64,000 nt of DNA, from NCBI RefSeq assembly GCF_005047655.1, contig NZ_SUKF01000005.1:248001-312000 (forward strand), given 5' to 3'. This document shows positions 48,552 to 58,113 of this stretch, in pieces. Each line of letters begins with the position of its first letter. Positions within the stretch are counted from its first letter, which is position 1. The position numbers and the translations under genes are program-made. This DNA is from Sinimarinibacterium arenosum (lineage in GTDB: Bacteria > Pseudomonadota > Gammaproteobacteria > Nevskiales > Nevskiaceae). The notes beneath the pieces were generated by a model. It was not told the origin of the DNA. It ran no database searches and was given only the letters and a program-made list of their open reading frames with translations.

Positions 48552-50234
48552 TCACACACGCCCGAGCATCAGGCTTTCCTCGATGGCTTCACGCTGATCC
48601 GCCGGCTCGTTGCCAACGCGCAGCTTCAGGTCGCCGCGCTTGGGCGTGCGCAGCCAGTGCGAGCGTTCCAGGCGTTTGATGATCGCGTTGACGTCGCTGT
48701 TGGGGTCGACGCGCTGGTGCCACAGCTCCAGCAGCGACTCCACCGTCTTCGAGCGGCGACCGGGTGAATCCGGCGTGTCGTAACTCAGCGGCAGCGACGG
48801 CGTCACCAGAATCAGCAGCGATTCCTGGCGCTGCGAATCGACGCTGTGACTGGTCAGCCAGTTGGCGACCGGAACGTCGCCGACCACCGGCACCTTGGAG
48901 AACGACTTGTCCTGCACTTGCTCGGACAGTGCGCTGAGCACCAGGGTCTGACCGAACTCGACATCGGCGGTCGCGCCGACCGACTGGCGGAACAGCGCCA
49001 GCGAATTCTCGAACGTGCCGATCTGCTCCTGGGTCAGGAACGAGCGCGAGGCGTCGAGCCGGAACGTCACCCGCCGGTTGTCGATGTATTCCGGTGTCAC
49101 CACCAGCTGCACCCCCACATCAATCGGCTGCAGACTGCCGAGATTGACGCCGCTGACTTCGACGTTGATCGTGCGCCCGGCGAAGAACTGCGACTCGCGC
49201 CCAAGGTGGGCCGTGATCGACGGTCGCGCCACCACGTTGTAGTACTGCCCCGAGTCGTTGAACAGATTGAGGCTGTAGTCGAGTTGCGGACTGGAGATCT
49301 GTGAGGTGATCGTGCGCGTGCTCTGTCGCGTGAGTCCCTCGCTGAACTGCTGCAGCACGTTCGAGTAGCCGTACAGCACGCGCAGGCCGTCGAACAGATT
49401 CACGCCGCGGTTCTTATTGTTCAGCATCGAGCTGAGCAGGATCGTGACCTCGACCACGACCTGCGTCGGCGCCGGCTCGGGCCTGGCCGCGCGTACCGGC
49501 GCCGCAGCGGTGTCGTCGATGCCGGCATCCGATGCCGTCCCGGTATCGGCCTGCGCCAGTTCGAGATACTCCGCCACGCGGCGCTCGAAGTAGGCGTCCT
49601 CGGCCGGGTCGTCGTTGAGTCGCGCGGCACGGCGCGCCATCGTCATCGCTTCCGGTTCTCCCTGCACCGCCAGCGCCAACGCCGCCAGACGCTGTGCGTC
49701 CTCCCGTTCCGAAGCGAGCTGGACCGTACGCTTGGCCGCGAGGTACAGCAGCGGCGTGTCCTGCCGGTGGTAGGACGCGACGCCCAGACCGTAGAACGCC
49801 TCCCAGCGCTGCGGCTGATCCAGCGCCGCCTCGGCAAAGCGCGACTGCGCCGCCGCCCAGTCGCCCCGCTCCAGCTCGAGCGCGCCCAGTCGCAGCAGGG
49901 CCCAGTAATTGCCGCTGGCAAAGCGGGCCGCATTGGCATAACCGACTTCGGCCAGCTGCAGCCTGGCGCGGTCGGTCTTGCGCGCACTGTTCTCCTGCGC
50001 CAGCGCGTACAGGAACTGCAGATGACCGTTACGCAGGTCCTGCTGCACCAGCCGCGCCAAGGGCGGCTCCGCGTCCGCCCACGCGCCGCCACGCAAGGCC
50101 GCGGCGGCTACCGACCAATCATCGGCCGGGGCGCCCGTCGCGACATCACGCTGCGGTTGCATCGCACAGGCGCCCAGCCCCAGCGTCAGCGCCGCGACTG
50201 AGAACATGCGGACGGTCGAAAGTCTTTGCATCAT
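48552..50234 (-). CDS. TPR-secretin lipoprotein
   Basis: The 560-residue protein starts with a lipoprotein signal (lipobox LGAC). About residues 45-220 are helical repeats of TPR type. The C-terminal ~300 residues match a bacterial type II/III secretin core: VVEVTILLSSMLNNKNRG, FFAGRTINVEVSG, GVQLVVTPEYIDNRRVTF, VEFGQTLVLSALSEQ and the terminal KVPVVGDVPVANW segment. Secretins form outer-membrane gates. This one lacks N0-N3 domains and has TPRs instead. No other secretion or pilus gene is nearby. It lies between the Cys-rich genes with gaps of 24 and 27 bases. Confidence 0.82.
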   Translation of the reverse strand: MMQRLSTVRMFSVAALTLGLGACAMQPQRDVATGAPADDWSVAAAALRGGAWADAEPPLARLVQQDLRNGHLQFLYALAQENSARKTDRARLQLAEVGYANAARFASGNYWALLRLGALELERGDWAAAQSRFAEAALDQPQRWEAFYGLGVASYHRQDTPLLYLAAKRTVQLASEREDAQRLAALALAVQGEPEAMTMARRAARLNDDPAEDAYFERRVAEYLELAQADTGTASDAGIDDTAAAPVRAARPEPAPTQVVVEVTILLSSMLNNKNRGVNLFDGLRVLYGYSNVLQQFSEGLTRQSTRTITSQISSPQLDYSLNLFNDSGQYYNVVARPSITAHLGRESQFFAGRTINVEVSGVNLGSLQPIDVGVQLVVTPEYIDNRRVTFRLDASRSFLTQEQIGTFENSLALFRQSVGATADVEFGQTLVLSALSEQVQDKSFSKVPVVGDVPVANWLTSHSVDSQRQESLLILVTPSLPLSYDTPDSPGRRSKTVESLLELWHQRVDPNSDVNAIIKRLERSHWLRTPKRGDLKLRVGNEPADQREAIEESLMLGRV

Positions 50235-50258
50235 GTCATCCCCCTGGAAATGGTCGCG

Positions 50259-50840
50259 CTAGCGGCAGCGCAGCCGCTGTATGCCGTTGAGATCGGTTTC
50301 ACTGGTCGGCACCGCCTGGCGGCCGCAGCAATAGGCCTGGTCGCCGGCGGCGACGATGGTTCCGGCCGGCGCGCAGACCGTGTTGAAATCGACGACTCCG
50401 CTGGTGTTGCGCGCCTGCGGCGAGAAGCGGCGGGTCCAGTACAGGCCGCGGCGCAAGCGGTCCTGCGCCTTGTCCCATTCAACGGCGCAGAACGCGCCGT
50501 TGCCGGCACCGCCGGCTGCGGAATTCGAACATCCGCGCCCCTGCGGATGCAGGAAGCAGCAACTGTCGTGTTCGATGCTGCCGGCGCTGACCATGCACTC
50601 CAGCTCGCTGGTGCCGAGCGCCGGCCGGCAGTACGCGACCCGGCCGGCGGGTCCGCCCAACTGGCTGCAGCCGTCCCCGGTGGCGCCGAAGCAATACGGC
50701 GAAACCCGCGCCGCAGCCGGCACACCAGGCGGGGTCATCTGCGATTGCGACGGCACGCTGATCGCGGCCAGCAGCAGCACCGCGACGATGCCGCCGGACA
50801 GCCCGCGGACGCCCCGGCACAGGGCCGCCAGCCGCTTCAA
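50259..50840 (-). CDS. Exported Cys-rich protein, 193 aa, unknown function
   Basis: I chose a TTG start at 50840 because it gives a signal peptide (VRGLSGGIVAVLLLAAISVP) and overlaps a short upstream leader frame (TTGA), implying coupled translation. The mature protein has about thirteen cysteines, including a CC pair (DSCCFLHPQGRGC) and several C-x(8-15)-C spacings, so it is a disulfide-bonded secreted protein. It is the first full gene of the secretin operon, directly behind operator copy A. Family unknown. Confidence 0.68.
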   Translation of the reverse strand: MKRLAALCRGVRGLSGGIVAVLLLAAISVPSQSQMTPPGVPAAARVSPYCFGATGDGCSQLGGPAGRVAYCRPALGTSELECMVSAGSIEHDSCCFLHPQGRGCSNSAAGGAGNGAFCAVEWDKAQDRLRRGLYWTRRFSPQARNTSGVVDFNTVCAPAGTIVAAGDQAYCCGRQAVPTSETDLNGIQRLRCR

Positions 50841-50914
50841 GATCGCACCCGGGCGCCCGCCGTTCGCGCGGCGCGGTACAGATGCAATGGGGATCGGACA
50901 GCGTGGCGGAACAT
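50837..50914 (-). CDS. 25-residue leader open frame before the Cys-rich gene
   Basis: A perfect AGGAGGAG lies three bases upstream of this ATG, and its TGA stop overlaps the TTG start of the Cys-rich gene (TTGA). It starts about 18 bases after the predicted transcription start of operator copy A. It may be a leader that couples translation, or the true N-terminus of the next gene if the sequence has a one-base error. Peptide: MFRHAVRSPLHLYRAART followed by AGARVRS. Confidence 0.45.
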   Translation of the reverse strand: MFRHAVRSPLHLYRAARTAGARVRS

Positions 50915-50938
50915 GGCTCCTCCTGGTCGATGGGCCGC

Positions 50939-51003
50939 AGACTGATCCCGTGCCGGTTCGAAATCCTGACCAATCGCCGACGAATTTCCGACGATTTGCG
51001 TCC
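50939..51003 (-). promoter_or_regulatory. Operator copy A and promoter of the secretin operon
   Basis: Read on the minus strand, the 43-bp element at 51003-50961 carries AAATCGTC and TGGTCAGGA blocks and three 11-bp-spaced repeats (CGTCGG, CGTCGG, GGTCAG). A -10-like CAGTCT lies at 50944-50939, 20 bases past the last repeat. No good -35 hexamer is present, which suggests activator-dependent transcription. It is in the gap shared with the divergent kinase-regulator gene. Confidence 0.72.
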
Positions 51004-51120
51004 ATGCCCTTCCGGCCCGCGGAAACACGGCAAAGCCGGACTACAATCCCGGCGACGACGCATCTGTCCGTGGAATCGAATGAGGGGATTCGATGAGCGC
51101 CAACAGCACCCGAAGCATTC

Positions 51121-53844
51121 ATGCCGCACACCACTGAACCCGGCGCGACCACGACCAGCGCCGTGCGCGGCATGCGCTGGCGTTTCGGGCGTTGCGGCTT
51201 CGACGGCTCCAGCCTGAGCCTGAGCGTCGACGATCAGATCGTGCCGCTGGAACCCAAGCCGCTCGAACTGCTGATGTTCCTGCTGCTGCACGCCGGCGAA
51301 GTCGTCACTAAAGAGGAGTTACACGAAAACATCTGGCCGGGCCGGGTGCTGTCCGAATCGGTGTTGACCAAATGCGTCGCGCGGCTGCGCAGCGCGATCG
51401 GGGACGCCGACCAGTCGATGATCCGGACCGTGCACGGCTATGGCTACCGCTTCGCCGCGGAGTTGAGCGTCGAGACCGCCACACCGGAGGCGCCGGCCCC
51501 GGCACTAGGGCTGCAGGCCGGCGATGCGCCACCGCTGCGCCCGCTGTGGCGCCTGCTCCGGCCGCTGGGTCACGGCGGCAGCAGCGAAGTCTGGCTCGCC
51601 GAGCACAGCAAGACGCGCGAGCAGCGCGTGTTCAAGTTCGCCCTGGGGCCGGACCAGCTGTCCGCGCTCAAACGGGAGATCACGCTGTTCCGCCTGTTGC
51701 AGCAGACCTACGGCGAGCGCCGTGACGTCGTCAGGCTGCTGGACTGGAATCTCGACGATCCGCCGTACTTCATCGAAACCGAACTCGTCGCCGGCGGCAC
51801 CCTGCCGGACTGGTGCGAGGCCCAGGGCGGGATTGCGACAGTGCCCACGGCGACGCGACTGGAACTGATCGCCCAGGCCGCCGAGGCGCTGGCCGCGGCA
51901 CACACCGCCGGCATCCTGCACCGCGATCTGAAGCCGGCGAACCTGCTTATCGACACCTCTGCCGAGCGCCCGCAGGTCAAGCTCGGCGATCTCGGCTGCG
52001 GACAGGCGCTGGATGCCCATCAGCTGCATCAGCTGTCGATCACGCGCATGGGCTTCACCCAGGCCCTTGACGGATCGACCGAAGGTACGCCGCTGTACCT
52101 CTCGCCGGAACGGCTGGCGGGTCAGCCGCCCACCGCCAAATCCGACATCTATGCGCTGGGCGTCATGCTGTATCAGGTGCTGGCGGCGGACTGGCGCCGA
52201 CCGCTGGCGCCCGGCTGGGAACGCGACATTGACGATCCTCTGCTGCGCGACGACATCGCCGCAGCTGCCGCCGGTCGCGCCGAGGAACGCATCGGTGATG
52301 CTGCCGAGCTGGCGTGGAACCTGCGCCACATGCGCGAACGCCACCAACGGCGCGAACATGAAACCGCGCAACAGCTTGAAGCCGAACGTCTGCGCAGCGC
52401 ACTGGACCGCAGTCGTCAACGCAGGGGCTTCACCCGTGCACTGGTTGCGGTGCTGATCGTCGGCATCTGTGCAACCAGTTTCGGTCTGTGGCGCGCACGC
52501 GAAGAAAGACGGCAAGCCATTGCAGCGCGCGAGGAAGCGAGCGCCGCCGTGCGCTTTCTCAGCGATGACGTACTGGCCGCAACCGATCCGTTCGGGGGCG
52601 GGCGACCGCGCCTGAGCCTGCATGGACTGCTCGACGAAGCGGCTCCCAAACTTGTCCAACAACTCGACCGCTTCCCGGTCGCGCGCGCGCAGATCGGCCT
52701 GGCCATGGGCCGCGCCTACGAAGGTCTGGGCGACTGGAGCGGCGCGCGACAACGGCTGGAAACCGCGCTCAAGGAAGCAGTCGGCGCGCTGGGCGAAGAA
52801 GCTGACTTGAGCCTGGCGATCGCCGATCGCCTGGCCTATGTCAGCCTGTTGCAGAGCCGCTACGACGAATCCGAGCGTTTGTTCGAGAAGGTCTACAGGA
52901 TCCGCAGCGCGCGTTTCGGGGAACACCATCCGGATACGCTGGCCACCCGTGACGGCATGGCGTGGCTGGAATACGAGCGCGGACACTATGCCGACGCCGC
53001 GCAGCGCTATGAAGCGCTGATCAAGGACTACGGCGACACCGATCCGGAGGGCCTGACCAGCGTGCGCTGGAGCCTCGCTGACTGCGATCTGGAACTCAAC
53101 CGCAGCGCCAAAGCCGAGCAGCTGATGCGTATGGTGATCGCCAACTCCACTGCCCTGCAGGGCGCGCACCACCCACGCGTGCTGTGGCAGATGACCACGC
53201 TGGGCGACGTGCTGATGACGCAGGGTCGCTATGACGAGGCGGCGCAGATCTTTGATCAGGCTTACACGGGGCTGGTCGCAACGGTGGGCGAAACCCATCC
53301 CTACACACTGACCGCGCTGCATTTTCGCGGGGTGCTGCAGCTCGAACGCGGTGATCCGGTGGCGGCGCTACCGCTGCTGCGTCGCGCCTACGAGAATCGG
53401 GCCGGCATCCACGGTGAGGACCATGTCTGGACGCGGTTCTCCGCCAACCGTGTCGGCGAAGCGCTGATCCAGCTGGGCCTGGTGTCCGAGGCGCTGCCGT
53501 TGCTGCAGAAGACCTACGCCGCCGCTGTCGCAGCACAGGGGCCGGCGCATCCCAATGTACTGCTGATTGTCCACAGCTACGCCGATGCATTGATCGCTGC
53601 CGGCCACAACGAAGAGGCCGAATCGCTGCTGCTGCGTGCGCTGGCCGACAGTCAGCAGTCGCTACCGTCCGACAATCTGCGCATCGCCTACCTTCGCCAG
53701 AGCCTGGGTGAACTGCGCGCGCAACAACACCGAACGGAGGACGCGAAGCGCGAGTTGACCGCCGCGCATGCCATCTATGTCACCGCACTCGGCGCCGCCC
53801 ATCCGCAGACCCAGCGCGCCGAGGAACGTCTGCGCCACATCTGA
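51121..53844 (+). CDS. Membrane regulator: OmpR-type DNA-binding domain + Ser/Thr kinase + TPR
   Basis: The 907-residue protein has a winged helix (about residues 24-114; ELHENIWPGRVLSESVLTKC, VHGYGYRFAAEL) like CadC/ToxR regulators. A complete Hanks-type kinase follows: Gly loop LGHGGSSEVW at 149, Lys171, HRDLKPANLL from 267, DLG at 290 replacing DFG, and YLSPE ending at 330. One membrane segment lies at about 436-457 (ALVAVLIVGICATSFGLW). The last ~440 residues are TPRs of the kinesin-light-chain type, predicted to be periplasmic. So it probably senses a periplasmic partner and both phosphorylates proteins and binds DNA. A 14-codon frame (51093-51137) with a better ribosome site overlaps its start. 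Confidence 0.9.
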   Translation: MPHTTEPGATTTSAVRGMRWRFGRCGFDGSSLSLSVDDQIVPLEPKPLELLMFLLLHAGEVVTKEELHENIWPGRVLSESVLTKCVARLRSAIGDADQSMIRTVHGYGYRFAAELSVETATPEAPAPALGLQAGDAPPLRPLWRLLRPLGHGGSSEVWLAEHSKTREQRVFKFALGPDQLSALKREITLFRLLQQTYGERRDVVRLLDWNLDDPPYFIETELVAGGTLPDWCEAQGGIATVPTATRLELIAQAAEALAAAHTAGILHRDLKPANLLIDTSAERPQVKLGDLGCGQALDAHQLHQLSITRMGFTQALDGSTEGTPLYLSPERLAGQPPTAKSDIYALGVMLYQVLAADWRRPLAPGWERDIDDPLLRDDIAAAAAGRAEERIGDAAELAWNLRHMRERHQRREHETAQQLEAERLRSALDRSRQRRGFTRALVAVLIVGICATSFGLWRAREERRQAIAAREEASAAVRFLSDDVLAATDPFGGGRPRLSLHGLLDEAAPKLVQQLDRFPVARAQIGLAMGRAYEGLGDWSGARQRLETALKEAVGALGEEADLSLAIADRLAYVSLLQSRYDESERLFEKVYRIRSARFGEHHPDTLATRDGMAWLEYERGHYADAAQRYEALIKDYGDTDPEGLTSVRWSLADCDLELNRSAKAEQLMRMVIANSTALQGAHHPRVLWQMTTLGDVLMTQGRYDEAAQIFDQAYTGLVATVGETHPYTLTALHFRGVLQLERGDPVAALPLLRRAYENRAGIHGEDHVWTRFSANRVGEALIQLGLVSEALPLLQKTYAAAVAAQGPAHPNVLLIVHSYADALIAAGHNEEAESLLLRALADSQQSLPSDNLRIAYLRQSLGELRAQQHRTEDAKRELTAAHAIYVTALGAAHPQTQRAEERLRHI

Positions 53845-53865
53845 TTCAGGGCACTGACGGCCCAC

Positions 53866-53895
53866 AAAAAAACCGGAGCTCGAGTGGAGCTCCGG
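53866..53895 (-). terminator. Intrinsic terminator of the disordered exported protein gene
   Basis: CCGGAGCTC (53873-53881), loop GAGTG and GAGCTCCGG form a perfect 9-bp stem. On the minus strand seven T follow. It ends the minus-strand gene at 53947 and may also serve the convergent kinase gene. Confidence 0.85.
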
Positions 53896-53946
53896 CCAGG
53901 TTCGCTGCAATTCGACGGCGCCATGCCGTCACGACCGCGGCACGCG

Positions 53947-55383
53947 CTACTTGTCCTTGGACGACTGCGTGTCGTCGGAGTCGTCGTCATCGCCCTCGTC
54001 CGCCGAACGCCCGCCGTTCAGATCCGTCTGCGATCCGACTCTGCCCAGCGTGTCACCGACACGATCCTGTTCGCGTCCGGGACCGGTATTGACCGTTTCG
54101 TCCGGACCCGGATCGACCGCGCCCAGACTGCCATTGAACTTGGGTCCCGAAACCGAGCCGCTTTCGCGGATGCCCGAACCCACCGGCTGTCCGAACAGGC
54201 TGTGCCCCATCGACTGCTGCGACGGCACCGCGCCCGAGCGGGCGACGCCGCTGCCGGTCTCGCCGCGATCCGGATTCACCGTGCCACCCGCCTTGGCCGC
54301 CTCCTTGATCTGGAAGTTCTTGTCGCCCAGCTTCTGACGGAGAAACTCTTCCTTGCTGACGTTGCCGTGGTCCTTGTCCGGGTCGGGCCGGCCCGCGGCC
54401 TCCTGCTGGTCGATCACCTTGCCGTCCTTGTCGTGCGTCACCGAGCTGCCGTCCGGCTGAATGGTTTCGCGCGTACCGTCCGGCTTTCTGACGTCGACCG
54501 AGCCGTCCGGATGCACCGTCGCCGAATGGCTGCAGGCATCGTTGTGACAGATCAGCTTGTCGTCCTTGGGCGGCTTGGCCTCGTCGCCACCGCCCGCGGG
54601 CTTGCCAGCGCCCGGCGTCTCGCCCTTGGAAATCGCATCGATCTCCTCGAAGCGCTTGCCGCCCATCACCAGGCCGGTAACCCTGCGCTCGTTCAGGCCG
54701 AGGTCCTTCGCCAGCGTGCCCTTGCCCCGGTTCTTCAGCTCTCCGTCCTGGAACGAGCCGGTCGGACTGGTGAGGCCTTCACCGTCAGCGATCGCGCCCT
54801 TGTCGATTCCGCGCGAGCGAGAATCGCTGGCCGCGGCCGCCTCACCCAGCGGGCCACCCATGCTGCCGCCGGTCAGGCCCTTCACGGGATTGCGCGCGCC
54901 GGCCGAAATGGCGGCGTCCGAGACTGCTTTGTCATCGATCTGCGGCCGCTCCCCGAAACCGTTGTCGAACTTCGGGCGTTGCGACGCCTTGTCCGCGGTT
55001 TCGTTGATCAGCAGCGTGTTGGCCGAACCATCACGAATATTGCCGGCGTCCTTCAACGCTTGCGCCGGATCGGACGACTTCGATCCCGAGCTGGTCTTGA
55101 CACCGCTGCGGTCGTCCCGGCTCAGGCCGGGCAGGCTCGGCTGCGGGCCGCCAGGGGCTTCCTCGTTAACGTCCTTCTTCTGATCCGGTCCGTCCTTGGG
55201 ATCCTGGAGCTTCACATCGGCCTTGAGCTTCGTCTGTGCCGACACGGCCGGCTTGGGGGCCTTCTTCTGGCTGGTGGCCAGATCCTTGTCGCCAGCCTGG
55301 GCGGGCCCTGCCAGCACCAGGCTCAACAGCGTCGCGGCGGCCAGGCCGCGCAACAGCGGCGCGGCGGTTTCTTCGGTATTCAT
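53947..55383 (-). CDS. Exported, largely disordered charged protein, 478 aa
   Basis: The ATG at 55383 follows AAGGAG and gives a signal peptide (cleavage near PAQAGDK). The mature protein is low-complexity, rich in Gly, Asp, Lys, Ser and Pro, with almost no predicted folded core and an acidic tail (DEGDDDDSDDTQ). Only one stretch looks structured: a repeated PDG turn (VHPDGSVDVRKPDGTRET, then QPDGSSVTHDKDGKV) near residue 300, beside a Cys pair CHNDAC. I recognise no family. It is a single gene behind operator copy B. Confidence 0.72.
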   Translation of the reverse strand: MNTEETAAPLLRGLAAATLLSLVLAGPAQAGDKDLATSQKKAPKPAVSAQTKLKADVKLQDPKDGPDQKKDVNEEAPGGPQPSLPGLSRDDRSGVKTSSGSKSSDPAQALKDAGNIRDGSANTLLINETADKASQRPKFDNGFGERPQIDDKAVSDAAISAGARNPVKGLTGGSMGGPLGEAAAASDSRSRGIDKGAIADGEGLTSPTGSFQDGELKNRGKGTLAKDLGLNERRVTGLVMGGKRFEEIDAISKGETPGAGKPAGGGDEAKPPKDDKLICHNDACSHSATVHPDGSVDVRKPDGTRETIQPDGSSVTHDKDGKVIDQQEAAGRPDPDKDHGNVSKEEFLRQKLGDKNFQIKEAAKAGGTVNPDRGETGSGVARSGAVPSQQSMGHSLFGQPVGSGIRESGSVSGPKFNGSLGAVDPGPDETVNTGPGREQDRVGDTLGRVGSQTDLNGGRSADEGDDDDSDDTQSSKDK

Positions 55384-55431
55384 GACAGGTCTCTCCTTCA
55401 GTCGGGTGCGGCATCGATTGCGCGCAGCCCA

Positions 55432-55496
55432 ACAGTAAGCAGACCGTTCCACCGAATCCTGACCAAACCCCGCCGAAGCCCCGACGATTTACGTCC
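55432..55496 (-). promoter_or_regulatory. Operator copy B and promoter of the disordered protein gene
   Basis: The minus-strand 43-bp element (55496-55454) has the same invariant AAATCGTC and TGGTCAGGA blocks, with repeats CGTCGG, CGGCGG and GGTCAG every 11 bases. A -10-like TACTGT lies at 55437-55432, at the same distance as in copies A and C. The start codon is about 50 bases further on. Confidence 0.75.
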
Positions 55497-55555
55497 GCCG
55501 CCATTGCCGGGGCCCGCATTGTGACGGCGCGCACATCCGGCAAGCCCCGGCACCC

Positions 55556-55583
55556 AAAAAAGGCCCCGTTTCCGGGGCCTTTT
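55556..55583 (-). terminator. Intrinsic terminator after the 287-residue exported protein gene
   Basis: GGCCCCG (55562-55568), TTTC loop and CGGGGCC form a 7-bp stem flanked by A and T runs. On the minus strand six T follow. It lies 30 bases after the stop at 55614. The same sequence recurs at 56644. Confidence 0.88.
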
Positions 55584-55613
55584 CGGGGCTGGCTTTCGCT
55601 CATCTGCACGCCA

Positions 55614-56477
55614 TCATGGAACCAGGCCCAGCAGCCGGTTCTCCAGACTCAGATCCAGATCGACATCGGTTTCTGCCGCCGAATGCTGGTTGTAGCCAAT
55701 CGCGGCATAGGCAGCGCCGTTATGGAACACACTGCCGCTGCTCCGGATCGTCAGCCGATAGTTGCCATTGGCGATCGACAGCACCTCTTGCAGCGGAACG
55801 TCAATGAAGACGCCGCCTGACGCTTCCGTGGAAACCGTCCGAGTGAAGATCACTTCATCCGGATTGCCGACCACAGCGATCCGCTTCAGTTCGATCACGA
55901 CGCTGGCGCTCGCTGGCTTGTAGGGCGGTGTGAAATAGGGATTGACCGGATCGGTTGCGCGTACACGCAAGTTGCCGGTGATGCGCACAACCGTCGGGCT
56001 CAGAACATTCAGCGTATTGAAATCGACAGCAATCAGTCCCGAATGGGTGTCACGGATCGTTCCGCTGTTGGGTCCGGCCACGTGACTCAGGCCCTGAACA
56101 GAGATCCCGGCGTGCGTCAGATACCCCAGACAATTGGTCTGCAGATCCTGGAACGCGGTGCTGTCCGATTCCACCAGCGTCGTGCCGTTGTAGACCGGTG
56201 GCTGGATGTCGCTGTGCGCCGCGATCAGCGTGCCGGGCTGATCGGTACGCACCTGGTCTTCTGCGGCGCAGACCCGGCCCGGCACTGGTTCGCCGTCGGG
56301 ATAGCACAGATGCGAGGTCACGCCGGGCACAATGGCGTATTCCTCGGACGTTGCCGTCGCAACCTCGGCCGTCACCTGCGCCTTGCCGAGCTTGATCGTG
56401 GGTAGGGCTGCCGAAGCAGGTGCGGATGCGAGCGTCGCGGCAAGTACGGCGCCGCCTATCAAAGCAGATTTGAACAT
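55614..56477 (-). CDS. Exported protein of unknown function, 287 aa
   Basis: I prefer the ATG at 56477 (GGGGAG six bases before it) to the one at 56483. A signal peptide (cleavage near APASAALP) is followed by a beta-rich protein with only three cysteines: SHLCYPDGEPVPGRVCAAED and TNCLGYLTHAG. The C-terminal half (VVIELKRIAVVGNPDEVIFTR, FIDVPLQEVLSI, YRLTIRSSGSVFHNGAAYAA) suggests a beta-sandwich. I recognise no family. It is monocistronic, behind operator copy C and before a terminator, and is the third unit of the proposed regulon. Confidence 0.72.
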   Translation of the reverse strand: MFKSALIGGAVLAATLASAPASAALPTIKLGKAQVTAEVATATSEEYAIVPGVTSHLCYPDGEPVPGRVCAAEDQVRTDQPGTLIAAHSDIQPPVYNGTTLVESDSTAFQDLQTNCLGYLTHAGISVQGLSHVAGPNSGTIRDTHSGLIAVDFNTLNVLSPTVVRITGNLRVRATDPVNPYFTPPYKPASASVVIELKRIAVVGNPDEVIFTRTVSTEASGGVFIDVPLQEVLSIANGNYRLTIRSSGSVFHNGAAYAAIGYNQHSAAETDVDLDLSLENRLLGLVP

Positions 56478-56522
56478 CACCATCTCCCCTGTCGTCGAGG
56501 CCGGCGGAATGCCGGCCCTGAG

Positions 56523-56587
56523 ACACTAGAAAAGGGACGTCGCCAAGTCCTGACCACCGCCCGTCAGAGTTGTGACGATTTACGGCC
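56523..56587 (-). promoter_or_regulatory. Operator copy C and promoter of the 287-residue protein gene
   Basis: The minus-strand element (56587-56545) is the most diverged copy, with repeats CGTCAC, TGACGG and GGTCAG every 11 bases, but it keeps AAATCGTC and TGGTCAGGA intact. A -10-like TAGTGT lies at 56528-56523, at the same position as in copies A and B. Confidence 0.72.
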
Positions 56588-56643
56588 GAACAGCAACAAC
56601 GGTGCGCTGAGTCGCGGCGGCGGAGGTTTGCGCCGCATCCATG

Positions 56644-56672
56644 AAAAAAGGCCCCGTTTCCGGGGCCTTTTT
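56644..56672 (-). terminator. Intrinsic terminator after pntB
   Basis: GGCCCCG (56650-56656), TTTC loop and CGGGGCC form the stem. On the minus strand a T-run follows, 20 bases after the pntB stop. The stem-loop is identical to the one at 55556. Confidence 0.88.
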
Positions 56673-56691
56673 GAAATCGCTGCAAAAAGAC

Positions 56692-58113
56692 TCAGTGGCC
56701 GCCGCCGTCCAGCGACTTGACCGCCTGGATCATCGCCACCATGACCTTCTGGGCATCGCCGTAGACCATGTTGGTGTTGTCGCGGAAGAACAGCTCGTTC
56801 TCGACGCCCGAGTAGCCCTTGCCCTGGCCGCGCTTGACCACATAGACCTGCTTGGCCTGGTCGACGTTGAGAATCGGCATGCCGTAGATTGGCGAGGACT
56901 TGTTGGTGCGTGCCGCAGGGTTCACGGTGTCGTTGGCGCCGATGACGATGGCGACGTCGGCTTCCTTGAACTCGCCGTTGATGTCTTCCATGTCATAGAT
57001 GATGTCGTACGGCACGCCAGCTTCGGCGAGCAACACGTTCATGTGACCGGGCATGCGGCCCGCGACCGGATGGATCGCGAACTTCACATCGACGTCATTG
57101 TCCTGCAGCAGCTTCACGAACTCATAGAGCTTGTGCTGCGCCTGCGCCACCGCCAGACCATAGCCCGGAGCAATGATGACCTTGGACGCATAGCGCATGT
57201 TGATGCCGGCATCGCCTGCATCGACCGGCCTCATGCTGCCCTGGATTTCACCCTGTTCTTCGTCGCCGGTGGCGCCAAAGTTGGAGAACAGCACGTTCGA
57301 CACGCTGCGGTTCATCGCCTTGGCCATCAGCAGAGTCAGCAGCGTACCGGCCGAACCCACCACCATGCCCGCGATCATCAGCGCCGGGTTGTTCAGCACG
57401 TAGCCTTCGAAGCCCACGGCCAGACCGGTGAACGCGTTGTACAGCGAGATCACCACCGGCATGTCGGCGCCGCCGATCGGCATCGTCATCATCACGCCGT
57501 AGACCAGCGCCAGCGCAAAGAACAGGCCGAGCACCGGCATCGTCACGCCGCCGTGCAGATACACGGTGTAGGCGCCAATGCCGAGCAGCACGACCAGCAG
57601 GCTTCCGTTGATGGCCTGCAGGCCGGACAGACGCAGGGTCTTGTTGATGCGGCCGTCGAGCTTGGCCCACGCGATCAGCGAGCCGGACAGCGAGACCGAA
57701 CCGATCAGACCGCCGAGCACCGCCAGCGACAGGCCGACGCTGCCGTGCGTCTTGTGACCGAACAGTTCGATCGCGGCGATCGCCGCCGCCGCGCCACCGC
57801 CCATGCCGTTGTAGAGCGCGACCATCTGCGGCATCGCGGTCATCGCGACCTTCTTGCCGCTCCACCAGGCCCAACCCAGGCCGAGCGTCAGCGCGACCGC
57901 GGCGAGGATGATGTTGGTCGTCAGATGCGGCTTGGCCGCCTCTTCCACGTCCAGCGTGTAGAGGAAGCTGGCGAGCACGGCAACGACCATGCCCCAGCCG
58001 GCGACGACGATGCCGGAGCGCGCCGTCACTGGCGACGACATGCGCTTCAGACCGTAGATGAACAGAAACGCCGCGGCGAAGTAAGCCGCGTCAATGATCA
58101 GTGCTGCATTCAT
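56692..58113 (-). CDS. pntB: NAD(P) transhydrogenase subunit beta PntB
   Basis: The 473-residue protein has an N-terminal membrane domain of about eight segments and a C-terminal NADP(H)-binding domain III: IAPGYGLAVAQAQHKLYE near residue 320, HPVAGRMPGHMNVLLAEA near 352 and VIGANDTVNPAARTNKSSPI near 395. With PntAa and PntAb it forms the proton-translocating transhydrogenase that makes NADPH. AAGGGG lies six bases before the ATG. Confidence 0.97.
   Translation of the reverse strand: MNAALIIDAAYFAAAFLFIYGLKRMSSPVTARSGIVVAGWGMVVAVLASFLYTLDVEEAAKPHLTTNIILAAVALTLGLGWAWWSGKKVAMTAMPQMVALYNGMGGGAAAAIAAIELFGHKTHGSVGLSLAVLGGLIGSVSLSGSLIAWAKLDGRINKTLRLSGLQAINGSLLVVLLGIGAYTVYLHGGVTMPVLGLFFALALVYGVMMTMPIGGADMPVVISLYNAFTGLAVGFEGYVLNNPALMIAGMVVGSAGTLLTLLMAKAMNRSVSNVLFSNFGATGDEEQGEIQGSMRPVDAGDAGINMRYASKVIIAPGYGLAVAQAQHKLYEFVKLLQDNDVDVKFAIHPVAGRMPGHMNVLLAEAGVPYDIIYDMEDINGEFKEADVAIVIGANDTVNPAARTNKSSPIYGMPILNVDQAKQVYVVKRGQGKGYSGVENELFFRDNTNMVYGDAQKVMVAMIQAVKSLDGGGH

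What the first reader, a model, noticed from the sequence alone, without database searches (positions are those of the whole stretch)
50939..56587. Three copies of a 43-bp promoter element define an unrecognised regulon
The elements at 50961-51003, 55454-55496 and 56545-56587, all on the minus strand, are identical in all three at 27 of 43 positions. Two blocks, AAATCGTC and TGGTCAGGA, are invariant. Each holds three half-sites at exactly 11-bp period and is followed at the same distance by a -10-like hexamer (CAGTCT, TACTGT, TAGTGT) with no good -35. Eleven-base direct repeats abutting -35 are the known layout of PhoB/OmpR-type activators. The genes behind them all encode exported proteins.
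Basis: partly seen in the sequence, partly recalled or inferred. Interest (0 to 1): 0.9.

Follow-up and report, generated by a model that had tools for sequence, protein, structure and literature searches.

The report
Paired promoter for kinase-containing membrane regulators
The three repeated DNA elements look like real switch-sites in front of genes for exported proteins, and the same kind of site, spelled differently but built to one plan, lies beside a family of membrane regulators in many bacteria, which suggests what this little-studied regulator family controls.

Summary
Observation confirmed: three minus-strand elements, 27 of 43 columns identical, far beyond chance; the genome holds no fourth close copy. 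The 11-bp repeats are clear in two, weak in the third. All lie within 3 kb of gene 51121-53844: an OmpR/CadC-type winged helix fused to a Ser/Thr kinase, one membrane segment and TPRs.

Upstream of such regulators in other Gammaproteobacteria and in Acidobacteria lies a box of the same plan but different spelling: 11-bp direct repeats ending near GTCAGGAC, pointing away from the regulator. A YANNNT hexamer follows at 18 or 19 nt in 45 of 60 non-redundant boxes; other offsets have 0-2. Among 62 held-out loci 33 score, against 7 of 238 control windows. The genome's two other such regulators have their own, weaker boxes (E 0.03 and 0.52). The genes behind all five look exported.

So this is a local regulator-promoter pairing, not a scattered regulon. 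Best reading: a ToxR-like membrane activator with an inserted kinase, binding tandem repeats that overlap -35. Binding, activation, start sites and the kinase's role are inferred. I found no description in the papers searched.

The parts
50961..51003 (-). Element 1: three 11-bp direct repeats (GTCGGAA / GTCGGCG / GTCAGGA), upstream of the Cys-rich exported gene and divergent from the regulator
50939..50944 (-). -10-like hexamer CAGTCT of promoter 1
55454..55496 (-). Element 2, upstream of the low-complexity exported protein gene
55432..55437 (-). -10-like hexamer TACTGT of promoter 2
56545..56587 (-). Element 3 (weak middle repeat), upstream of a 289-aa exported protein gene
56523..56528 (-). 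-10-like hexamer TAGTGT of promoter 3
51121..53844 (+). Regulator, 907 aa: winged helix (aa 41-111), Ser/Thr kinase (aa 145-355), one hydrophobic segment (from about aa 435), TPRs towards the C terminus
   Evidence: Pfam, hydropathy, AlphaFold and Foldseek for the winged helix, PDB sequence search
50259..50840 (-). Target 1: exported Cys-rich protein (193 aa if it starts at the TTG), with relatives beside related regulators
   Evidence: signal peptide by eye; tblastn relatives; alignment
48552..50234 (-). Secretin-domain lipoprotein with TPR, downstream of target 1 in the same direction; relatives in 6 of 80 named loci
   Evidence: Pfam Secretin 1.8e-21; tblastn
53947..55383 (-). Target 2: exported, low-complexity 478-aa protein; weak relatives beside regulators in L121 and L122
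55614..56483 (-). Target 3: exported 289-aa protein; a relative (37% identity) lies directly behind the box in L154 (Sinimarinibacterium)

Best explanation
The three elements are activator-dependent promoters bound by the neighbouring protein at 51121. That protein is a membrane-anchored one-component regulator of the ToxR/CadC type: an N-terminal OmpR-type winged helix, an inserted Ser/Thr kinase, one membrane segment and a TPR domain expected outside the cytoplasm. Winged-helix domains bind head to tail on 11-bp direct repeats; the last unit, near GTCAGGAC, overlaps a degenerate -35 (AGGACT), so RNA polymerase is recruited to a promoter whose -10 is a YANNNT hexamer 18 or 19 nt on. Regulator subfamilies differ in the spelling of their repeats, so the pairing is probably private: one regulator, one or a few promoters next door, driving exported proteins. 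In this window the set has grown to three promoters. Shown by sequence: layout, its conservation, co-occurrence with the regulator, location. Inferred: binding by this protein, activation rather than repression, start sites, TPR outside, private specificity, signal and kinase role.
For: Period-11 triple repeats upstream of 68 loci whose match begins in this winged helix: 15 at p<=0.01, other periods 0-5; 0 of 21 kinases without the winged helix, 0 of 13 downstream stretches. Box model on 62 held-out named loci: 33 hits, 32 pointing away from the regulator, controls 7 of 238. YANNNT at offset 18 or 19 in 45 of 60 non-redundant boxes and in 22 of 33 held-out ones, other offsets 0-2. Own genome: the three elements rank first, the boxes of its two other such regulators rank 4th (E 0.03) and 6th (E 0.52) of 9 hits. 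In 61 genomes 15 of 31 hits lie within 600 bp upstream of a regulator, all divergent, and 6 more in its neighbourhood. Winged helix: CadC best by sequence (8.7e-22), PhoB, PhoP, CadC and ToxR by fold. Hydrophobic segment in 75 of 77 regulators. The 62% ortholog in L030/L121 has its own box with TAGCCT at the same distance.
Against: No experiment. 27 of 80 named loci have no upstream site of 8 bits or more, and of 49 further loci not used for the matrix only 18 reach 10 bits; some have a site elsewhere in the locus. The box of one paralog in the own genome is poor: E 0.52, and no YANNNT at 18 or 19 nt. Recognition-helix/box covariation is weak: partial Mantel r 0.30 for unit 1 and 0.17 for unit 2, but 0.15 for the spacer and 0.13 for upstream bases, which should be neutral, and -0.16 for unit 3. 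10 of 31 genome hits at E<=0.05 are far from any regulator or on contigs without one. Element 3's repeats are poor.
Confidence: 0.8

Rival explanations
1. The 51121 protein binds the boxes but represses: sites that overlap -35 block polymerase until a signal releases it.
For: The last unit overlaps the -35 position, and repressors also bind there.
Against: The -35 and -10 hexamers are poor (AGGACT; mostly CAGNNT or TAGNNT instead of TATAAT), as in promoters that need help, and the units lie at fixed distance as in activation by PhoB-type regulators (established knowledge, not tested here).
Confidence: 0.12
2. The conserved GTCAGGAC-N18-YANNNT is the promoter of an alternative (ECF-like) sigma factor and the upstream repeats are secondary.
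For: The last unit and the hexamer are the parts shared by most subfamilies, while units 1-2 vary.
Against: In the own genome the convincing sites lie only beside the winged-helix kinases, whereas a sigma regulon would be scattered; the 11-bp repeats are enriched when searched for on their own.
Confidence: 0.06
3. A different OmpR-type response regulator binds the elements, and 51121 is only a neighbour.
For: The genome has 10 other Trans_reg_C proteins; 11-bp repeats suit any of them.
Against: Boxes follow the winged-helix kinase genes across genomes; none of the 9 own-genome hits lies beside one of the 10 other Trans_reg_C genes.
Confidence: 0.05
4. The copies are a mobile or extragenic repeat (REP-like) or a structured RNA without promoter function.
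For: Three similar copies in 6 kb.
Against: No Rfam match in 50000-57500; copies differ between genomes while keeping layout, orientation and distance to the hexamer; only three close copies in the genome.
Confidence: 0.02

Closest known systems
ToxR-like membrane one-component regulators (CadC, ToxR)
   Same: N-terminal OmpR-type winged helix (CadC is the best PDB match by sequence), single hydrophobic segment, C-terminal domain presumed outside, targets next door as cadBA for CadC (the latter recalled).
   Different: A Ser/Thr kinase lies between winged helix and membrane; a review read in passages (PMC5936718) describes the family as periplasmic sensor plus winged helix without a phosphoryl acceptor domain. 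CadC is proposed to bind an AT-rich quasi-palindrome, not 11-bp direct repeats (PMC5430869, passages).
PhoB/OmpR pho-box type promoters
   Same: 7-nt direct repeats with 4-nt spacers, i.e. period 11 (PHO box described so in PMC3131613, passages), next to -35 (recalled); same fold of the binding domain.
   Different: No receiver domain in the protein; the last unit ends 18 or 19 nt before the -10-like hexamer, further upstream than in E. coli pstS (about 10 nt, recalled).
SARP activators such as AfsR
   Same: OmpR-type winged helix in a large protein with TPRs, direct repeats at 11 bp.
   Different: The SARP 3' repeat lies 8 bp from -10 (PMC10936776, passages); here 18 or 19 nt. AfsR has a nucleotide-binding oligomerisation domain (abstract in the listing); that it lacks kinase and membrane segment is recalled.
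Membrane Ser/Thr kinases with TPR
   Same: Kinase and TPR resemble those of kinase-TPR proteins found in the same genomes.
   Different: Those sampled lack the winged helix, and 1 of 21 has a box by the same matrix.

Membership tests
ToxR-like receptors | N-terminal OmpR-type winged helix | tested here: met
   Trans_reg_C 3e-16; CadC 8.7e-22 with family profile; AlphaFold pLDDT 93, PhoB/CadC/ToxR by Foldseek
ToxR-like receptors | one membrane segment C-terminal to the winged helix | tested here: met
   hydropathy only: segment at aa 370-480 in 75 of 77 regulators of 600 aa or more, the window's included
ToxR-like receptors | C-terminal sensor domain outside the cytoplasm | not testable with these tools
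   TPR region follows the hydrophobic segment; side not measured
ToxR-like receptors | cytoplasmic part is the winged helix without phosphotransfer domain | tested here: not met
   Pkinase 2.3e-28 at aa 145-355; K172, D269, N274 and D290 invariant in 20 sequences (their catalytic role is recalled). Hence 'works like', not filed as an ordinary member
PhoB/OmpR box promoters | direct repeats with 11-bp period | tested here: met
   element 3 weak
PhoB/OmpR box promoters | repeats adjoin or overlap -35 at fixed distance to -10 | tested here: met
   45 of 60 at 18 or 19 nt; 15 of 60 without such a hexamer
PhoB/OmpR box promoters | bound by a phospho-receiver response regulator | tested here: not met
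   no receiver domain among the Pfam matches of the 907-aa protein
SARP (AfsR) promoters | 3' repeat 8 bp from -10 | tested here: not met
   18 or 19 nt; definition from PMC10936776 passages
Scattered regulon | sites at many loci in the genome | tested here: not met
   3 close copies by sequence; 9 hits by the general model, five beside winged-helix kinase genes, four others at E 0.27 to 4.4

The most novel reading that the evidence does not exclude
A widespread, undescribed class of membrane regulators carries sensor, Ser/Thr kinase and DNA-binding domain in one chain; each member has a private promoter beside it, spelled to fit its own recognition helix, and its kinase gates DNA binding or polymerase recruitment in response to a signal outside the cell, perhaps the exported product itself.
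Probability: 0.35. Interest if true: 0.8.

Novelty: new variant of a known kind. Interest (0 to 1): 0.62.

Why it matters
Fused winged-helix/Ser-Thr-kinase proteins were found in 27 of 61 genomes around the host and also in Acidobacteria, yet my searches returned no paper on what they control. A promoter plan that can be read from sequence points to their targets (exported proteins, in one branch a secretin-type lipoprotein), offers many natural protein-site pairs for a recognition code of OmpR-type winged helices, and makes the question of what a kinase does inside a DNA-binding membrane receptor directly testable.

Tried and rejected
The first genome pattern, typed with one N too many, gave 0 hits; corrected. 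In some searches I treated 14 minus-strand loci as if oriented; one search repeats the test with the right side, and 13 of the wrong-side stretches were kept there as a 'downstream' control. The 68 positive loci come from the listed matches that begin in the winged helix; 7 of them match in that part only (L057, L095-L100), and at least two listed ones (on G014:C35 and G015:C3) were not taken. Hand-anchored boxes: of 27 loci listed, 17 went into the first matrix; 10 were dropped as near-duplicates or of unclear anchor (L046, L094, L076, L078, L099, L087, L083, L063, L088, L097); L037, L040 and window elements 2 and 3 were added (21 in all). The hexamer was visible when I chose, so the 33 held-out elements are the fair test of it.

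Model R1 (34 elements) was trained on boxes from several genomes later searched, among them the window itself and 9 of the 12 loci behind; of the other three (L178, L193, L200) only L200's box was found. These searches therefore show mainly that few other sites match as well. Recognition-helix covariation was not convincing because neutral columns correlated too. The Cys-rich protein gave a poor model (pLDDT 65) and no fold match below E 2. The 25 PADLOC matches shown for the regulator (of 33) lie in the kinase region. The search of 60 relatives for the window's own spelling found only scattered 2- or 3-mismatch hits outside the own genome.

Literature: of ten searches in the PMC open library, eight sought winged-helix/Ser-Thr-kinase/TPR regulators and two PhoB-box comparators; none of the listings showed a paper that I recognised as being on such regulators. 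Papers were judged from listings, four were looked at in passages, none was read whole; subscription papers are not covered. The rival explanations are not strictly exclusive, so their odds need not add to one.
Full report
OBSERVATION. The three elements are present at the stated places on the minus strand and share 27 of 43 columns; both named blocks are invariant. Their pairwise identities (35, 30, 30 of 43) stand apart from everything else in the window (at most 24 of 43). A pattern with up to 3 mismatches found 3 matches and none in 100 shuffles; in the 4.54-Mb genome a similar pattern found these 3 and one 3-mismatch hit on another contig. The 11-bp period is clear in elements 1 and 2 and weak in element 3. 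The hexamers CAGTCT, TACTGT and TAGTGT lie at the same distance in all three. Start codons with Shine-Dalgarno-like stretches follow at 50914 (a short ORF), 55383 and 56483 (my reading), which fits starts just after the hexamers.

THE NEIGHBOUR. Gene 51121-53844 encodes 907 aa: Trans_reg_C winged helix (aa 41-111), protein kinase (145-355) and TPRs, with one hydrophobic segment from about aa 435. A profile of the winged helix matches E. coli CadC best among solved structures (8.7e-22), then response regulators and ToxR; the AlphaFold model (pLDDT 93) matches PhoB, PhoP, CadC and ToxR domains. K172, D269, N274 and D290, the kinase's catalytic positions by recalled knowledge, are invariant in 20 relatives. 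The genome holds three such fused regulators among 13 Trans_reg_C matches.

WHO THE HOST IS. Contigs of genomes listed as the same genus have the lengths of records of Solimonas flava DSM 18980, Solimonas variicoloris DSM 15731 and Sinimarinibacterium flocculans DSM 104150, so the window is most likely from Solimonas or a close relative (inference).

TEST IN RELATIVES. A 62% ortholog in another genus (L030 = L121, Nevskiaceae MAG) is divergent from a weak relative of target 2 (E 4e-5) and has between them GGTCGGAAAAC GGTCGGAATTC GGTCCGGAC, followed at the same distance by TAGCCT. I then took upstream regions of 68 loci from the 61 genomes whose match begins in the winged helix (7 match there only): triple repeats at period 11 reach p<=0.01 in 15 and p<=0.05 in 24, against 0-5 and 1-11 at the other nine periods; among 21 kinases without winged helix 0 and 0; among 13 downstream stretches 0 and 1. 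A matrix from 21 hand-set boxes was applied to 80 named loci fetched with the regulator alignment: 53 of 80 upstream regions score 8 bits or more, 50 of them pointing away from the regulator; gene-body control 4 of 80. Leaving out 18 loci whose box resembles a training box, 33 of 62 score 10 or more, 32 pointing away, against 7 of 238 control windows. With the same matrix and 10 bits, 18 of the 49 earlier loci not used in training score, 1 of 21 kinases without winged helix and 1 of 13 downstream stretches.

THE HEXAMER. From the away-pointing boxes of 10 bits or more plus window elements 2 and 3 (85) I kept 60 that are less than 70% alike. With the box ending at the C of GTCAGGAC, YANNNT occurs at offset 18 or 19 in 45 of 60; the other 36 offsets between 0 and 37 have 0 to 2 each. 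Among the 33 held-out elements it is 22. Most hexamers are CAGNNT or TAGNNT. The box consensus reads CGTCAGGAATTCGTCAGAATTCCGTCAGGACT. Repeats are spelled by subfamily: GTCGGAA in the window's branch, CTTTAGA in most Acidobacteria loci, GTTTGAA in Stenotrophomonas and a Thiobacillus MAG, CTTGAAGG in Thermomonas (organisms); the last unit stays near GTCAGGAC in most.

GENOME-WIDE. A sequence-only model of 34 elements returned in the own genome the three window elements first (E 2.9e-5, 6e-4, 0.007), then boxes upstream of the other two fused regulators at rank 4 (E 0.03) and 6 (E 0.52), and four other hits of E 0.27 to 4.4. The rank-6 box has no YANNNT at 18 or 19 nt (sequence). In 61 genomes, 31 hits at E<=0.05: 15 within 600 bp upstream of a regulator, all divergent; 6 in the same neighbourhood (two of them window elements 2 and 3); 3 far away; 7 on contigs without a regulator. 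16 of 27 genomes with a regulator have a hit, 2 of 34 without. In the 12 genomes behind named loci, 10 have a hit next to the regulator, 2 have none, and 3 further hits exist. Several of these boxes helped build the model, so the message is the scarcity of other sites.

TARGETS. Behind the boxes lie mostly genes with signal-peptide-like N termini: a rule-of-thumb test of 30 targets exported against 59 of 219 distal ORFs (a target could be assigned for 30 of the 49 named loci used). In the own genome all five boxes precede genes that look exported by eye, including a 2453-aa protein and a small lipoprotein beside the paralogs. The window's secretin lipoprotein has relatives in 6 of the 80 named loci, the Cys-rich protein in 4, target 2 weakly in 2, target 3 in 1, where it sits directly behind the box; flanks were at most 6 kb, often less.

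MECHANISM. Most likely the regulator, tethered in the membrane, sets its winged helices head to tail on the repeats and recruits polymerase over a degenerate -35 (AGGACT) that the last unit overlaps. Specificity may reside in units 1 and 2: for unit 1 the correlation with the recognition helix, after allowing for the kinase domain, is 0.30, for unit 2 0.17 and for unit 3 -0.16, but neutral columns show 0.13-0.15, so this is only a hint. What the TPR domain senses and what the kinase does are open.

KNOWN OR NEW. It works like ToxR/CadC receptors and like PhoB-type boxes, but the kinase in the chain and the 18/19-nt distance set it apart from ordinary ToxR-like proteins and from SARPs (8 bp; PMC10936776). 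Only passages of PMC10936776, PMC5430869, PMC5936718 and PMC3131613 were seen. I therefore call it a new variant of a known kind.

Noticed in passing
50840-50914 (minus strand): Right behind promoter 1 a 25-codon Arg-rich ORF with a good Shine-Dalgarno ends in a TGA that overlaps the TTG start of the exported Cys-rich protein; translational coupling or an indel.
   Followed up: no
50259-50840: Cys-rich exported family with an HDxCC motif, with relatives beside related regulators; no Pfam, NCBIfam or fold match, poor AlphaFold model.
   Followed up: partly
48552-50234: Secretin-domain lipoprotein with N-terminal TPR, far below the curated cut-offs of the type II, type III and pilus secretin models; relatives in 6 of 80 loci beside the regulator.
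   Followed up: partly
55562-55579 and 56650-56667: Two identical GGCCCCGTTTCCGGGGCC hairpins with T-runs (terminator-like) stand just upstream of elements 2 and 3, at the ends of the preceding minus-strand genes; they hint at a local duplication.
   Followed up: no
L199 1932 and 9072: Nearly identical boxes twice in one 9-kb locus (Stagnimonas MAG), another local multiplication like that in the window.
   Followed up: no
G012:C6:315948-316001 (in L210): The best-scoring hit of the 61 genomes lies 11 kb from the nearest fused regulator's start, before a 900-aa lipoprotein-like gene.
   Followed up: partly
L191: The record is titled Rhodospirillales, but a genome with this contig length (G033:C104) is listed in the window's family; the title may be wrong.
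   Followed up: no
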